Shown: in pieces, positions 7,694 through 58,159 of the stretch
How the letters are laid out: the number at the start of each line of letters is the position of its first letter
How positions within the stretch are numbered: position 1 is the stretch's first letter
Source: Spiroplasma helicoides
GTDB lineage: Bacteria; Bacillota_I; Bacilli_A; Mycoplasmatales; Mycoplasmataceae
Assembly (NCBI RefSeq): GCF_001715535.1
Contig: NZ_CP017015.1
Coordinates: forward strand, 744,001 to 808,000
Direction of reading: 5' to 3'
DNA: 64,000 nt
Made by a program: the position numbers and the translations under genes
The notes under the pieces: generated by a model
What the model was told of the DNA's origin: nothing
Databases searched by the model: none
The model's input: only the letters and a program-made list of their open reading frames with translations

Positions 7694-8368
7694 CTAAACT
7701 ACATTGAAACTTTTTAAAAAAGCATAGATAACTTCTGAAATTTTATTACTTGCTTTATTTAAAATTTCATTAAATTGATTTTCGTTTGATTTTTTTGTTA
7801 GAACATCACTTATAATTTTTATTGCTAATATCGGTTTATTAAATAAGTAAGCTGATTGAAAAAAAGCACAACACTCCATATCAACGATTTCAATTTTAGT
7901 TTTAATCGGTTTTATTAAAGTATTTACAGCTTCAGAATTATTAATAAAAATGTCACTTGTGGCTATATTTAATTTTTTAAAGTTTTTTATTTGACTAATT
8001 TTTTTTGATAGTGATTGGTCAGATGTATAAAATGCAGGCATTTTTGGAATTTGACCGTATTCATATCCAAAACCAGTTGTATTGGCAGAACTATAAAAAG
8101 CTTTATCAACTAAAACAACATCTAAAACATTATTTTCATCAGAAATACACCCTGCAAGACCAGCATTTATATATATTTCTGGATTAAACTTGCCATCAAT
8201 ATAAGTAAAACATGATGATGCATTTGAAATGCCAATTCCACTTATAGCAATTATAATGTTATTTTTTTTAAACACTAAAAAAGGTTTTTCAATTATTAAA
8301 CTTGGATTCAATTTATATATTAATGGTTGAGCTTCATCAATCATTGCAAACAAAATGCATAAATTCAT
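7694..8368 (-). CDS. mtnN: MTA/SAH nucleosidase
   Basis: 224 residues, normal length for the Pfs/MtnN family. It cleaves 5'-methylthioadenosine and S-adenosylhomocysteine to adenine and the thioribose derivative, recycling the by-products of methylation. Family features seen: N-terminal ILFAMIDEA, which carries the catalytic Glu after the first strand; the Gly-rich IIIAISGIGISNAS; AGLAGCI; and VDMECCAFFQ, whose Met-Glu contacts ribose, followed by a conserved SDV. Its ATG begins 1 base before the nadD-yqeK stop codon, so the two are translationally coupled. Confidence 0.9.
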   Translation of the reverse strand: MNLCILFAMIDEAQPLIYKLNPSLIIEKPFLVFKKNNIIIAISGIGISNASSCFTYIDGKFNPEIYINAGLAGCISDENNVLDVVLVDKAFYSSANTTGFGYEYGQIPKMPAFYTSDQSLSKKISQIKNFKKLNIATSDIFINNSEAVNTLIKPIKTKIEIVDMECCAFFQSAYLFNKPILAIKIISDVLTKKSNENQFNEILNKASNKISEVIYAFLKSFNVV

Positions 8369-8369
8369 A

Positions 8370-9470
8370 TTATTTGTTACCTTTCACTCAATGATTATAG
8401 GCAATAAGTAGTTTTTCTCCAATAGTTTTATCATCATTCTTAGCGATTGAGACTTCATACTGATTTTTTAACAACTCAATAAAACCAAGTTTTAAATCAG
8501 ATCTTACTAAGGCTCTCAATCTTTCAACATCAGGATAATTTCTTTCAACCGATATTTTATCTGCACAAAATACTATCATATCAAGAACACTCATTTCTTT
8601 GTCTGCTACCGTATGTTTAAAAACTGCATTTATAATATCTTGATCATCAAAAAGTCAATCCCTTTTTAAATGAAAAGCACCTGCAAATGAGTGTAAAACC
8701 GGTTTTGGTTCTAGCATTAGTGATTTATCATAACTTTCAATTATTTGTTTTGTATCTTCAAAACTTCATCTTTTTGCAATATCATGTAAAGTTCCAGCTA
8801 ACAAAGCCTTATTTAAATTATAATTATTTAACTTTGCCAACAATAGCGCTTCTTGTCCAACATTTAGTGAATGATAATATCTATCTTGATCCATTTTTGA
8901 TTCTATTCTTTCATAAACATACATAAGAGAATTATTTATATAATCATTTACTTCTTTTATTTGAAGTTTAATATCTATAAGGTTTCTTATTTTTGTTGAA
9001 CTAAGATGATTATTATCAAACTCAAATGTTTCTAAATTATATTTTTTTACAATATCTTCATTTATTACATCAGTTCTAAGAAAAATTTTAAAATCAATTA
9101 TTTTTATCAAGTCACTAAAGTGATCTCATTTTTCAAACGTATCCAATTGATCAGATCCCATAATAAAACTAAAATTTATATTAGGGTATTTTTTTAAAAA
9201 ATGACAGACAGTATCATAAGTGTAGCTTCGTTCAGTTTTTCTAATTTCAAATGTTTCTACTCTAACAAAATCTAATCCTTTAATTGCAATCTCTATCATT
9301 TCAAGCCTTTGTGTAACACTAGAAGAAGATATTGTTTTAAAAGGATTTACATATGCAGGTAGAACCCAAACTTCATCAAAACCTAGTTTGTAATGACAAG
9401 TTTTAATAATGTTAACATGGTCGGTATGAATAGGATCAAAAGAACCTCCAAATATAGCAACTTTTTTCAT
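8370..9470 (-). CDS. nadD: NadD-YqeK fusion: nicotinate-nucleotide adenylyltransferase plus HD hydrolase
   Basis: 366 residues. The N-terminal half is NadD, which makes deamido-NAD: GGSFDPIHTDHVNI carries the HxGH-type nucleotidyltransferase site (here HTDH), and SSTKIR near residue 150 is the second ATP-binding motif. The C-terminal half is an HD-domain phosphohydrolase of the YqeK type: HSLNV, TLHDIAKR (HD pair), and a distal FCADKIS. YqeK proteins in Firmicutes hydrolyse Ap4A and are usually a separate gene next to nadD; the two are fused in many mollicutes. The ATG overlaps the stop of the HAD gene by one base (TAATG). Confidence 0.9.
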
Positions 9471-10327
9471 TATTTATTATTAACTAAATCCCTTAGATAT
9501 TTACCAACACCATTATTGTCAATGCTATCTAAAACATGTTTTGCGATTTTTTTAAGCGGTTCTACACCATTTTGAAGAGTACAGCCGTTATTAGATTGTT
9601 CTACCATTTCTAAATCATTATTATTATCTCCAATTGTGTGAATTTCTTTAACATCCACTTTAAGAATTTTAGCTATTTTTTTTAATGCATTTGCTTTATT
9701 ACAAGAATTATCTAATGCATCAATCAATATTCTTTCACTCATATTTGTTATTGGAAAATATAAGTTCAATTTTGTTAATAAAGATTTTGTTTTTTCTACA
9801 ATTTCTTCACTACCTTTTTCTGGAAAAGAAAACAAAAACTTGACAGGTTTGTGTTTTGCATTTATAGCATATTTTCGTAAATCTTGAAGATTATCAAAGT
9901 ATTTTATAACAGGTCTAAATTGTTTTTCTAAATGAGCATAAGTATTTTCAAAATATATTGCTCTTTCAGCTCCTTTTAAACTTACAAATTCCGTTGCTGA
10001 ATAAAAAATAAGTTCAATATTATTTTCAATTGCATAATCTAGTATAGTTTCGCATGTATTTATAGGCAATTGATTTTCATATAAAACCTCTTTTGTTGTT
10101 GGGTCAATTATTGTAGCTCCATTGCTTAAAACTACTGGTAATTTTACATTCAATTTATGTATATATAATTTGCTAGTTTCATATAATCTTCCTGTAACAA
10201 TAAAAAACTTATTATTACTTTTTTCTTGATAAAAATTTATATCTTCAACTGTTTTATCCAACATTGTAAAGTCTGAGTTTTTAACAATTGTTCCATCCAA
10301 ATCACAGCCTACATAAGGTAATCCCAT
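9470..10327 (-). CDS. Cof-type HAD phosphatase
   Basis: 285 residues. HAD motif I is CDLDGTI at residues 8-14, motif II FIVTGR, and motif IV GDNNNDLEMVE near residue 235. The size and the cap between motifs II and III fit the Cof/YwpJ subfamily, which dephosphorylates sugar phosphates, FMN or similar small molecules; the substrate is unknown. AGGAG lies 10 bases before the ATG. It is the first gene of a tight run HAD-nadD/yqeK-mtnN, and the upstream region holds the divergently placed RNA candidate. Confidence 0.85.
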   Translation of the reverse strand: MGLPYVGCDLDGTIVKNSDFTMLDKTVEDINFYQEKSNNKFFIVTGRLYETSKLYIHKLNVKLPVVLSNGATIIDPTTKEVLYENQLPINTCETILDYAIENNIELIFYSATEFVSLKGAERAIYFENTYAHLEKQFRPVIKYFDNLQDLRKYAINAKHKPVKFLFSFPEKGSEEIVEKTKSLLTKLNLYFPITNMSERILIDALDNSCNKANALKKIAKILKVDVKEIHTIGDNNNDLEMVEQSNNGCTLQNGVEPLKKIAKHVLDSIDNNGVGKYLRDLVNNK

Positions 10328-10455
10328 AATAAATATTCTCCTTTTAGTTAATTCTAGAAATATTTTACACCAATTAATTTAAAACAAATTATAAATAAAA
10401 TTCAAATAATTTACTCAAATTTTTATATAAAAAATTATTTTTTTTTATAAATTTG

Positions 10456-10483
10456 TTGACAAACTTTTTTAATTTGTTATATT
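10456..10483 (+). promoter_or_regulatory. Sigma-A-type promoter for the 10490 RNA
   Basis: A consensus -35 box TTGACA (10456-10461) and a -10 box TATATT (10478-10483), 16 bases apart, on the plus strand. No plus-strand protein gene follows before the terminator at 10707-10740. Confidence 0.75.
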
Positions 10484-10489
10484 TATATT

Positions 10490-10740
10490 GTCCTTTTGGA
10501 CGCATTTGTGGAAATCAAGTCTTTTATTTACATCACTTTCATTAAAGATTTGATTTATAATATAACATCCTTTCTTTCGACTTGACTTGTATCAAGTGCC
10601 ACAAATGAAAATTGATATAAGTCTTATTCATTACTCATTCATATCTTTTTAATTATTAGCAAATCAACAATTTATAATATGCGAAAGCATACAAAAATAA
10701 TAAAAGAAAAAAGCGTTATAAATGCTTTTTTCTTTTTTTT
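10490..10740 (+). ncRNA. Candidate structured small RNA, about 250 nt, unknown family
   Basis: This fills most of the 427-base space between the HAD gene and the next gene. Starting at the predicted start site there is a GTCC-TTTT-GGAC hairpin (10490-10501). A closing stem follows: CATTTGTGG (10503-10511) with CCACAAATG (10599-10607). Inside it CAAGTC (10516-10521) pairs with GACTTG (10579-10584), next to a small hairpin ACTTG-TAT-CAAGT (10585-10597). A tetraloop hairpin TATGC-GAAA-GCATA lies at 10678-10691. It ends in an intrinsic terminator. I see no RNase P, tmRNA or SRP core motifs. A long rod with a small hairpin on the 3' side of its bubble is reminiscent of 6S RNA, but this is only a guess. 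Confidence 0.6.
10707..10740 (+). terminator. Bidirectional intrinsic terminator
   Basis: An 11-base-pair stem AAAAAAGCGTT-ATA-AATGCTTTTTT (one G-U pair) is followed by a T-run on the plus strand. On the minus strand it also has Ts after the stem, so it can end both the RNA candidate and the membrane-protein gene at 10755. Confidence 0.85.
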
Positions 10741-10754
10741 ATTTTTTTATAAAA

Positions 10755-11492
10755 CTAATTATTATTTTTTTTAGAGTTTTTTTGAGATACTTTTTCAAGC
10801 TTTCTTGCTCTTTTTTCTTGTTTTTTAATATCTAGGTAAGATCTGTATTTATCAACAACTATCATTATTTTTGACCAAATTCATTGGAAAAATAATCCTA
10901 TTGTTCAAAAAAATGTTATTAACAAAAATAATAAACCTATAGTGTAATAAACTATTGAACAATTTGCTGCTATTCTATTGGTTAAGCTATCATCCCCTAA
11001 ACCTTTGAGCGCCATAAAAGTTTTGTGAGGCAGTAATCCTCCCCCGTTTAAATAACTTAATGATCCTGGTATTAATGTAAATAAAACGCCAATTATAAGA
11101 AAATGAAAATATCTAGCTCATTTAAGATATTTTTCTTTTTCAACATTAATAAATTTATCACTCAGTTTTTCTTCAATTAATCAATTTGCAAATGTAAAGT
11201 ACAAAACAACTAAAATAGGAATTGAAGGAATAGTTCCTAAAATAACAACAGCAAAAACAAATCCAACTAGAGATTTTGGTTCTTCTTCTGTTCATGATAA
11301 GTCAAGCATATTCATTATTCCTTTTCATCAATAATTAAATCCAGTATGTTTATTATAAGGAACAAATAAACAAATAATTAGCATTAGAATTTGAAAAAGT
11401 ACTAATGAAAAAAAGGCAAAAGATAATCAAAACATTTTATATAGTCTTCTATAAGGCTTGATTCTTATTATAAAATCTGCAAATTTTTTCAT
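10755..11492 (-). CDS. Membrane protein with four predicted segments, unknown function
   Basis: 245 residues, not recognised. Hydrophobic stretches lie near residues 20-45 (FWLSFAFFSLVLFQILMLI), 75-105, 125-145 and 175-205, with a basic Lys-rich C-terminal tail of about 35 residues. After the first helix it carries VPYNKHTGFNYWW; a very similar VPYNKY...FYW follows a helix in the membrane protein at 20574-21755, so the two may be distant paralogs. It is read alone, with its own leader, and shares the terminator with the small RNA. Confidence 0.65.
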
Positions 11493-11601
11493 ATTATTCC
11501 CCATCTATTTCTTTTATTTTAAATTATTTTTCAAAAATATAATGAATTTTTATTAGTTTTATTTTAAAAATTGACTAAAATATACATAGTGAGGTCATAT
11601 T

Positions 11602-39771: not shown

Positions 39772-39860
39772 TGGTCCCCAGGGCCGGACTTGAACCGGCA
39801 CGGCCTTTAAGAGCCGCTGGATTTTAAGTCCAGTGCGTCTACCACTTCCGCCACCTGGGG
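39772..39860 (-). tRNA. tRNA-Leu (UAA)
   Basis: 89 nt with a long variable arm as expected for class II tRNA. Anticodon loop CTTAAAA gives UAA. Acceptor ends CCCCAGG...CTGGGGACCA, with CCA encoded. T-loop GTTCAAGTC is intact. Last of the five-tRNA cluster. Confidence 0.95.
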
Positions 39861-39867
39861 TTATTAA

Positions 39868-39943
<76 letters not shown>

Positions 39944-39960
39944 GCTAATATAAAAAATAA

Positions 39961-40035
39961 TGGCTGGGCTAGCAGGATTCGAACCGGCGCATGATGGAGT
40001 CAAAGTCCATTGCCTTACCGCTTGGCTATAGCCCA
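39961..40035 (-). tRNA. tRNA-Gln (UUG)
   Basis: 75 nt. Anticodon loop CTTTGAC gives UUG. Begins TGGGCTA as tRNA-Gln usually does, paired with TAGCCCA, and CCA is encoded. Confidence 0.95.
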
Positions 40036-40042
40036 ATTAAGA

Positions 40043-40126
40043 TGGTGGGGAGAGACGGATTCGAACCGCCGAACCGTTAGGAGATGGTTTACAGCCACCC
40101 GCGTTTAGCCACTTCGCTATCTCCCC
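40043..40126 (-). tRNA. tRNA-Tyr (GUA)
   Basis: 84 nt with a long variable arm, as for bacterial tRNA-Tyr. Anticodon loop CTGTAAA gives GUA. Acceptor GGGGAGA/TCTCCCC, and CCA is encoded. Confidence 0.95.
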
Positions 40127-40133
40127 ATTATAG

Positions 40134-40209
40134 TGGTGCTGACTAAAGGACTCGAACCTTCGACCTATTGATTACTAGTCAATTGCTCTACCAACTGAGC
40201 TAAGTCAGC
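40134..40209 (-). tRNA. tRNA-Thr (AGU)
   Basis: 76 nt, first tRNA of the cluster. Anticodon loop CTAGTAA gives AGU. A-starting Thr anticodons are known in some mollicutes. Acceptor GCTGACT/AGTCAGC, and CCA is encoded. Confidence 0.93.
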
Positions 40210-56420: not shown

Positions 56421-57947
56421 TTACTGAACGAAAGCCATTGCCACAAAGCAAACTAAGAAAATAACATCAAATATTCATATTACCGGGCTGATTTCTTTGC
56501 TTTTTTTGTTTGCTAGACATCCTATTGTATATGCAAATAGTCCTAGACAAATTCCAATTGCAATATTATAAGTAATTATCATAAATAAAATTATAAAGAA
56601 TGAAGATAAAGCAATTTCTGGTTTTTTTCATTCTATTTCAGTAATATTACCAATCATAATTATTCCTATAAATAATGTTGCAGCGCCAGTAATGCAATCT
56701 GGTATCATTCCAAAAATTGGAAATAAAGCAATACTTAATAATAAACCAAGTGAAGTTATCACTGATGCAAATCCAGTTCTTGCCCCTTGTGAAATACCTA
56801 CACAACTTTCTGCATAAACAGCCATATGAGATATCCCTACTAATGAACCAGCTATTGAAGTTCCCCCATCAATTATCATTGCTGCTTTTGGAATTTCGGT
56901 TGGTTTTTCTCTATTTTTATTAATAATTACATTAACAGAAGTTAATGTTCCAGTAGCATCAAAAAATGTTAATATTGTAAATACAAATATCGAAACATAC
57001 ATAGTTGGACTAGTTCAAATAGCTTTATTACCAGCATTTGTATATGTTTCTTTTAAGTTATGTACAAATCCGTTTCAAAGAAGATTATAGTCTCATCCAT
57101 CTGATTTTCATCTTGCGGTTGAAAATGCCTGATCAACAGCACTGTTACTTCCTTTTGGAACTACATTTGCAATTATAACAGCGATAATAAATCCCGCTAG
57201 CATCATAATTGCAACTGGTGCTATAAATTTTTTATAGTGCAAAACAATTGCCGCAAATACAACAACAGTTCCTAAGATGATTCCTATGTATGTTTGTTTA
57301 AAATCACTTAAAGCAGCTTTTGGAAGACCATCTCTAGATTCAGCAACTCAACCGATATTTTTAATACCAACATAAGCTATAAAAAAACCTATTCCTAAAC
57401 CAATTGCTATATGCAATGATTTTGGTAGAGCTTTTATAAGTATTTTTCTAACATTGGTAATACTAATTATACAAAACAAGATTGAAGAAATGGTTGTAGC
57501 CATTAATGCTCCTTCAAATCCAATTCCCTTAGATGCAACACTATATGTAAACATTGCATTTATCCCCATACTTGGAGCTAATGCTACAGGTACATTACTG
57601 CTTAATCCCATTAATAAAGTTGCTATAAACGATACAATTGCTGTTGATAAAAATACTCCTTGTGCATTCATTTTTACACTTTGATCAGCAACACTTGAAG
57701 CACCACTTAAGATACTTGGCTCAACTGATAAAATATAAATCATTGCAAGTAAAGTACTAATTCCACCAATAATTTCTTTTTTTAAAGTTGTATTAAATTT
57801 TGCGAATTTGAAAAATTTTGCTAAAGAGCTATTGTCTTCATCATATTTCTTTTTTGACTTTTCTGCGCTATTTATAATTATATTTTGTTCAACAAATTCT
57901 GATTTATTTTTTTTGTTACTTTTTACATCATCATTATTGTTTAACAT
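56421..57947 (-). CDS. pbuG: Guanine/hypoxanthine-type purine permease (AzgA/PbuG family)
   Basis: 508 residues, about twelve membrane helices after a charged N-terminal tail of about 55 residues. EIIGGISTLLAMIYILSVEP is the AzgA family start, ALAPSMGINAMFTY the conserved helix 3, and FDATGTLTSV with ESCVGISQGARTGFASV are the two half-helix regions of the NAT/NCS2 fold. It brings guanine or hypoxanthine into a cell that cannot make purines. It sits downstream of a guanine-type riboswitch, supporting the substrate call. TGGAGG lies before the ATG. Confidence 0.93.
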
Positions 57948-58028
57948 TTAACCTCCATAAAATTTAGAATAGTAAAAATTAAATATTTTGAGTGTAATTA
58001 AACAATAACCTATGAAGTACTTCTTAAA

Positions 58029-58097
58029 GCAACTTGTAGCGTCTAGATAGGTCTAGCGTAGAGACTTTGGCCCATTATGCCAAATTATATAAGTTAC
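58029..58097 (-). promoter_or_regulatory. Purine (guanine-type) riboswitch controlling pbuG
   Basis: On the minus strand P1 TAACTT/AAGTTG encloses J1/2 TATAAT, P2 TTTGGC-ATAATGG-GCCAAA, J2/3 GTCTCTAC, P3 around loop ACCTAT, and J3/1 with C-T-A. The L2 and L3 loop sequences are those I know from Mesoplasma florum guanine and 2'-deoxyguanosine riboswitches. The TCTAC core and the C at 58039 (position 74 equivalent) indicate guanine rather than adenine. The expression platform (57960-58028) has a GAAGTACTTC palindrome but no clear U-run, so it may act on translation. Confidence 0.88.
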
Positions 58098-58159
58098 ATT
58101 TAATTACATTTTTATTATATATTATATTTTCTTGTAAATGGTAAATGCATTTTCAATGA

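What the first reader, a model, noticed from the sequence alone, without database searches (positions are those of the whole stretch)
10456..10740. Stand-alone ~250-nt structured RNA with its own promoter and terminator
The plus strand has TTGACA/TATATT, five mutually compatible helices including a 9-pair closing stem and a GAAA-capped hairpin, and a terminator. There is no protein gene in the right direction. The conserved cores of RNase P RNA, tmRNA and SRP RNA are absent. It could be a divergent 6S RNA or a lineage-specific RNA.
Basis: partly seen in the sequence, partly recalled or inferred. Interest (0 to 1): 0.72.

Follow-up and report, generated by a model that had tools for sequence, protein, structure and literature searches.

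The report
New pseudoknotted small RNA in Spiroplasma
A stretch between two genes encodes a stand-alone RNA of about 250 letters that every checked genome of one Spiroplasma group carries, folded into an evolutionarily preserved knot; it matches no catalogued RNA family and probably controls other genes' messages.

Summary
Window 10490-10740 (+) is a real, stand-alone structured RNA gene. It is present in 20 of 20 genomes of the window's genus (the Spiroplasma Apis clade). One clear homolog lies in a MAG of another genus of the family, which the record calls Spiroplasma sp. No other convincing homolog was found among 320 genomes of the order. Nineteen of the 20 copies have an extended -10 promoter directly before the first helix; all 21 end in an intrinsic terminator.

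Both helices are rebuilt from different letters in different species. In the MAG both have wholly new sequences and the topology is unchanged.

Two G-poor, nearly invariant stretches stay unpaired: AACATCCTTTCTTTCGA and ATTACTCATTCATAT.

It is not 6S RNA: no Rfam match, no 6S in the genome, wrong architecture. RNase P, tmRNA and SRP RNA genes lie elsewhere.

Best reading: a new family of trans-acting regulatory RNA whose exposed loops touch translation starts. One loop shares eight letters with the 16S anti-Shine-Dalgarno tail, but the statistical support is weak and no conserved target was found. Protein binding is the main rival.

The parts
10456..10483 (+). Promoter: -35 TTGACA (10456-10461), 16-nt spacer, extended -10 TGT-TATATT (10475-10483). 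In 19 of 20 genus members the copy is TG(A/T)TA(T/C)ATT, 15-16 nt before the first helix
   Evidence: L009 (TTGTTATTCT) is the one weak case; L004 has TACATT
10490..10740 (+). The RNA gene, about 250 nt here, 236-268 nt in the genus; about 216 nt in the MAG of another genus
   Evidence: Conserved as a unit in 20/20 genus genomes, homolog in G183/JALAGN010000023. The 5' end is inferred from the promoter and the 3' end from the terminator; neither was measured
10490..10501 (+). P1: 5'-terminal hairpin GUCC-UUUU-GGAC
   Evidence: one C-G pair invariant in 20; U-A to U-G in 2; GTCCC-TTTT-GGGGC in the MAG
10503..10511 (+). P2, 5' strand (CAUUUGUGG)
   Evidence: RNAalifold: 7 of 8 P2 pairs have double compensatory changes; partner-swap test -14.9 own against -8.9 +/- 0.7 permuted, 0 of 5000
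10512..10556 (+). P4 hairpin arm inside P2 (10512-10524 with 10544-10556); its loop carries M1, ACAUCACUUUC (10530-10540)
   Evidence: A hairpin is predicted in every genus member but with unrelated stem sequence. M1 is altered in L013-L015 and absent in the MAG, so it is not essential
10564..10580 (+). M2: near-invariant, G-poor single-stranded motif AACAUCCUUUCUUUCGA (AACAUCCUUUCU kept in the MAG)
   Evidence: ATCCTTTCTTTCGA invariant in 20/20; predicted 0.85 unpaired; shares UCCUUUCU with the genome's 16S 3' tail GGAUCACCUCCUUUCU
10584..10593 (+). P3, 5' strand (GACUUGUAUC): the pseudoknot helix, crossing P2
   Evidence: Partner-swap test -13.2 own against -7.1 +/- 0.85 permuted, 0 of 5000; each of the first seven pair positions has two or more standard pair types
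10599..10607 (+). P2, 3' strand (CCACAAAUG), lying between the two strands of P3
10614..10623 (+). P3, 3' strand (GAUAUAAGUC)
10630..10667 (+). M3 block: AUUACUCAUUCAUAU (10630-10644) plus CUUUUUAAUUAUUAGCAAAUCAA; the most conserved stretch of the RNA, with a single G
   Evidence: Almost every column invariant in 20/20; AUUACUCAUUCAUAU unchanged in the MAG; predicted 0.91 unpaired
10678..10691 (+). P5: GAAA-capped hairpin UAUGC-GAAA-GCAUA
   Evidence: a hairpin of varying sequence recurs in most members
10703..10740 (+). Intrinsic terminator: A-rich 5' arm, GC pairs, T run
   Evidence: Stem plus T run detected in 21 of 21 sequences, with different stem letters
9470..10327 (-). Neighbour, not part of the RNA: HAD-family hydrolase, divergently transcribed
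   Evidence: Pfam PF08282, 2e-48. Many relatives have an unrelated protein family ('c1') in this place
10755..11504 (-). Neighbour, not part of the RNA: membrane protein converging on the terminator
   Evidence: weak match to 60KD_IMP, below cut-off. In most relatives a lipoprotein-like or other gene takes this place

Best explanation
A new family of stand-alone regulatory RNA in Spiroplasma. Shown by comparison: a separate transcription unit with an extended -10 promoter; a 5' hairpin; an H-type pseudoknot (P2 crossed by P3) that survives extensive sequence replacement; near-invariant, G-poor segments (M2 and M3) on the two sides of P3, predicted unpaired; an intrinsic terminator. Inferred: the 5' hairpin and pseudoknot make the RNA stable and present M2 and M3 for base pairing with mRNAs around translation start sites. 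M2 resembles the anti-Shine-Dalgarno tail of 16S rRNA and could mask Shine-Dalgarno sequences. This would be trans control like that of the C-rich loops of Firmicute sRNAs.
For: Presence in 20/20 genus genomes and a homolog in another genus. P2 and P3 covariation. Promoter and terminator kept in the members. Neighbouring genes differ between genomes and lie on the other strand, so there is no fixed cis partner. M2 and M3 predicted unpaired. M2 prefers translation starts over coding DNA more than shuffled M2 does in two separate gene sets: 2 of 100 shuffles as good for 44 window genes, 7 of 150 for 117 genes from ten relatives. The true anti-SD gives 0 of 100 and 0 of 150. M2 shares UCCUUUCU with the 16S tail.
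Against: No second, conserved near-full complement of M2 or M3 was found in the 20 genomes; recurring M3 complements are inside conserved coding sequence. M3 and M1 show no preference for translation starts. The M2 signal is weak and several motifs were tried. A near-invariant 38-nt block is more than short seed pairing needs. Strand-specific RNA-seq of S. diminutum and S. taiwanense, both carriers, reported only tmRNA and RNase P RNA as highly expressed ncRNAs in both species (PMC5726471).
Confidence: 0.45

Rival explanations
1. A lineage-specific RNP: the pseudoknot and the invariant single-stranded M2 and M3 bind one or more proteins (a dedicated partner or a ribosome-associated factor), and the RNA works as a scaffold or decoy.
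For: Long invariant unpaired stretches around a covarying pseudoknot are typical of RNA-protein complexes (general knowledge); no conserved antisense target found; M3 is kept across genera.
Against: No protein gene stays next to the RNA in all genomes, so no partner is suggested. Not found in the other genera searched, including other Spiroplasma, although a fast-evolving RNA could be missed.
Confidence: 0.3
2. A divergent 6S RNA that binds RNA polymerase.
For: Size is close, 6S is not found elsewhere in the genome, and the RNA is stand-alone.
Against: No Rfam 6S match; conserved fold is a pseudoknot with a 5' hairpin and long single strands, not an end-closed rod with a central bubble; conservation is concentrated in G-poor single strands.
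Confidence: 0.03
3. A cis element: antisense RNA to a neighbour, or a leader or attenuator of a downstream gene.
For: In many members and in the MAG of another genus it lies between the divergent c1 gene and a convergent lipoprotein-like gene, so synteny is partly old.
Against: The terminator follows directly and the next gene is on the opposite strand in the members examined; the RNA persists where both neighbours have changed, as in the window.
Confidence: 0.07
4. The functional transcript is the minus strand.
For: The minus strand also folds well (z -6.0), as expected for any perfect helices; its complements of M2 and M3 contain SD- and AUG-like letters.
Against: Promoter spacing and the terminator's T run fit the plus strand in the members. 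P2 and P3 hold 32 G-U pairs against 1 A-C mismatch (the helix finder favours G-U, so this is supportive only). No ORF of note on the minus strand.
Confidence: 0.04

Closest known systems
Firmicute trans-acting sRNAs with C-rich loops (RsaE/RoxS, RsaA of Staphylococcus and Bacillus), from general knowledge
   Same: Stand-alone gene, sigma-A-type promoter, intrinsic terminator, exposed pyrimidine-rich loops suited to Shine-Dalgarno pairing
   Different: No Rfam match to any of them; no UCCC motif; long near-invariant M3; no target identified
6S RNA (RF00013)
   Same: Size class and stand-alone gene
   Different: Pseudoknot instead of a rod with central bubble; no covariance-model match
tmRNA (RF00023)
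   Same: Bacterial RNA with pseudoknots
   Different: Genuine tmRNA is at 98357-98767 of the same genome; no match to the tmRNA model here
Ms1 RNA of Actinobacteria
   Same: Lineage-restricted stand-alone RNA found by comparative means (PMC9130861 abstract)
   Different: Described there as structurally related to 6S RNA, which this RNA is not

Membership tests
6S RNA (RF00013) | Match to the 6S covariance model | tested here: not met
   None in the window at gathering score, none in 10350-10780 up to E 10, none in the genome; the search rang in E. coli and B. subtilis controls
6S RNA (RF00013) | End-closed rod with a large central bubble | tested here: not met
   Comparative fold is P1 hairpin plus crossing P2/P3 with long unpaired 3' block
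6S RNA (RF00013) | Binds RNA polymerase and templates product RNAs | not testable with these tools
   Needs biochemistry or small-RNA sequencing
RNase P RNA (RF00011) | Is the genome's RNase P RNA | tested here: not met
   Found elsewhere, 294103-294452, 251.6 bits
tmRNA (RF00023) | Is the genome's tmRNA | tested here: not met
   Found elsewhere, 98357-98767, 113.8 bits
SRP RNA (RF00169) | Is the genome's SRP RNA | tested here: not met
   Found elsewhere, 8356-8452, 63.4 bits
Any Rfam 15 family | Match above gathering score at the locus or its homologs | tested here: not met
   No match at the locus; no match in 19 relatives' loci
Stand-alone structured RNA gene | Own promoter and terminator, no linked ORF, compensatory changes in helices | tested here: met
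Trans-acting antisense sRNA | Conserved complementary targets at translation starts | tested here: inconclusive
   No conserved near-full complement; weak TIR preference of M2 only
Trans-acting antisense sRNA | Detected transcript | not testable with these tools
   Read data not held; the published analysis did not list it among highly expressed ncRNAs

The most novel reading that the evidence does not exclude
A ribosome-tail mimic: a pseudoknotted RNA that displays a copy of the anti-Shine-Dalgarno sequence (M2) beside an invariant second strand (M3), and so competes with or tunes ribosome recruitment on many mRNAs at once in a reduced-genome bacterium.
Probability: 0.15. Interest if true: 0.8.

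Novelty: new variant of a known kind. Interest (0 to 1): 0.6.

Why it matters
Reduced-genome bacteria such as spiroplasmas are thought to have few regulators, and few of their RNAs beyond the housekeeping ones have been described. An RNA kept in all 20 genomes examined of an insect-associated clade, with a covarying pseudoknot and near-invariant exposed strands, very probably does something the cells need. It is small, has clear predicted ends, and can be tested at once in existing strand-specific RNA-seq of two cultured species. The alignment and covariance model also give annotators a new family to add.

Tried and rejected
Rfam at gathering and permissive thresholds: only weak, chance-level hits, mostly to the terminator. 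6S, RNase P, tmRNA, SRP: excluded. Exact pattern of the block in genome contigs and viral contigs: none; the tool warns that near records may be left out. Sequence-profile hits outside the genus: those inspected lie in coding or AT-rich DNA and lack the M2/M3 layout; only G183 survived inspection. c1 homolog in G024: the region beside it shows no such RNA. Antisense targets by near-full complementarity: about chance level for M2, coding coincidences for M3; a 27-of-29 match in a 5' UTR of one genome (G011, L097) is not conserved in others. Pairing of M2 or M3 with rRNA, tmRNA, RNase P and SRP regions: at best slightly beyond shuffles, not convincing. The count on the model-fitted alignment A6 understates P3 because the two subclades have different register; the register-free partner swap was used instead.

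Full report
WHAT WAS CLAIMED.

THE OBSERVATION. The sequence is as described. TTGACA at 10456 and TATATT at 10478 are 16 nt apart, with a TG dinucleotide making an extended -10. The first helix starts 7 nt after the -10. The predicted transcript folds at -53.7 kcal/mol, against -31.9 +/- 3.6 for shuffles. The minus strand folds about as well relative to its shuffles, as any set of perfect helices would, so folding alone does not settle strand or reality.

COMPARATIVE EVIDENCE. A DNA search of 40 relatives finds the element in all 20 genomes of the window's genus, the relatives at 70-88% identity over all or part of the query. A sequence profile (R1) over 320 genomes of the order again finds all 20, at E 1e-18 to 1e-23, and nothing else better than 1e-4. 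Four of these genomes can be named by exact chromosome length, using a published table (PMC5091035): G005 1075140 = S. taiwanense, G002 945296 = S. diminutum, G015 1175131 = S. culicicola, G018 1160554 = S. apis. The genus is therefore the Apis clade of Spiroplasma. The window's own species was not established.

A SECOND GENUS. One weak profile hit, in G183 (another genus of the family), turned out to be a complete homolog. It has AACATCCTTTCT, ATTACTCATTCATAT, a 5' hairpin GTCCC-TTTT-GGGGC, a P2 of TCGTAATAA/TTATTACGA, a P3 of AATTGTTTT/AAAACAATT crossing it, and a terminator. Its P2 and P3 letters differ from those of the genus, yet the topology is the same. A gapped two-motif pattern finds G183 and eight genus members and nothing else among 320 genomes, with no match of the backward control. 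The same record in GTDB contigs is JALAGN010000023.1, MAG: Spiroplasma sp. isolate feces_b_bin.14. Other weak hits were inspected and rejected.

STRUCTURE. RNAalifold on the 20-sequence alignment A2 recovers P1 and P2; 7 of 12 pairs have double compensatory changes, all in P2. It cannot draw crossing helices. Searching each sequence for its best helices gives in all 20 the order P2 5', P3 5', P2 3', P3 3', an H-type pseudoknot; in L007 the program's first P2 choice was replaced by hand with CTCAGGC/GCCTGAG. As a register-free test, the 5' strand region of each species was hybridised with the 3' region of its own and of other species. For P2, own partners average -14.9 kcal/mol and permuted partners -8.9 +/- 0.7 (best of 5000: -11.5). 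For P3 the figures are -13.2 and -7.1 +/- 0.85 (best -9.9). The crossed control pairings, P2-5' with P3-3' and P3-5' with P2-3', show little or no such difference. In a fixed-register count of P3, 94.8% of cells pair against 71.1 +/- 5.6% for shuffles, with up to four pair types per position; the register was chosen by eye. A count on a model-fitted alignment gives a covariation score of 0.434 against 0.148 +/- 0.023, although there the two subclades are out of register. P4, inside P2, is predicted in each genus member with different letters; its loop motif ACATCACTTTC is altered in three species and absent in the MAG. P5 is a small hairpin, GAAA-capped in many members.

TRANSCRIPTION UNIT. 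Nineteen of 20 genus sequences have TG(A/T)TA(T/C)ATT 15-16 nt before P1. All 20, and the MAG, have a stem plus T run at the 3' end, giving RNAs of 236-268 nt in the genus and about 216 in the MAG. The 5' and 3' ends are inferred, not measured. The neighbouring genes lie on the opposite strand and vary: a HAD hydrolase or an uncharacterised family (c1) upstream, lipoprotein-like or other genes downstream. The c1/RNA/lipoprotein order is shared with the MAG and so is probably old, but the window genome keeps the RNA without it.

WHAT IT IS NOT. No Rfam family matches the locus or its relatives. The genome has its own RNase P RNA, tmRNA and SRP RNA and no detectable 6S. The architecture is not that of 6S.

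HOW IT MAY WORK. With the P2 and P3 strands set aside as paired, M2 (AACATCCTTTCTTTCGA) and M3 (ATTACTCATTCATAT) are predicted 85% and 91% unpaired. They flank P3, so they should lie close in space. Both are poor in G. M2 shares UCCUUUCU with the 3' tail of this genome's 16S rRNA, GGATCACCTCCTTTCT. M2 prefers translation starts over coding sequence more than shuffled M2 does, in two separate gene sets (2 of 100 and 7 of 150 shuffles as good). The true anti-SD is stronger (0 of 100, 0 of 150), and M1 and M3 show nothing. Several motifs were tried, so this is weak support. No conserved extended target was found for M2 or M3. Antisense control through short seeds is the first choice; protein binding, especially by the M3 block, is the main rival.

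EXPRESSION. A published strand-specific RNA-seq study of S. diminutum and S. taiwanense reports only tmRNA and rnpB as highly expressed ncRNA loci in both species, after coverage cut-offs (PMC5726471). Both species carry this RNA (L012, L006). It is therefore probably not among the most abundant RNAs in that culture, or it fell below their cut-offs; the reads are public and would settle it.

NOVELTY AND SCORE. The paper searches returned no description of such an RNA, though most subscription journals are not in that library. It is a new family of a known kind of thing, a stand-alone bacterial regulatory or RNP RNA, with an unusual pseudoknot plus G-poor strands. Reality of the structured RNA gene: about 0.95. 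Proposed mechanism: about 0.45.

Noticed in passing
window 58017-58112 (-): Purine riboswitch (RF00167, 40.3 bits, just over the cut-off) upstream of a xanthine/uracil-type permease gene at 56421-57947 (-).
   Followed up: partly
window 8370-9470 (-): Fused gene: nucleotidyltransferase (NadD-like, PF01467) joined to an HD-domain part (YqeK-like); the c1 gene of genome G024 lies next to a similar fusion.
   Followed up: partly
L002:1-1398 (-) and relatives: Uncharacterised protein family (c1), no Pfam match, divergent neighbour of the RNA in many Apis-clade genomes and in the MAG; among 38 genomes searched, mostly outside the genus, clear matches only in G183 and G024.
   Followed up: partly
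L097 (G011:C1:922563-922591): A 5' untranslated region in one genome matches the complement of the RNA's M3 block at 93% over 29 positions; not seen in the other genomes, could be chance or a species-specific target.
   Followed up: partly
window 39772-40209 (-): Cluster of five tRNA genes (Leu, Lys, Gln, Tyr, Thr), the Thr tRNA with anticodon AGT.
   Followed up: no
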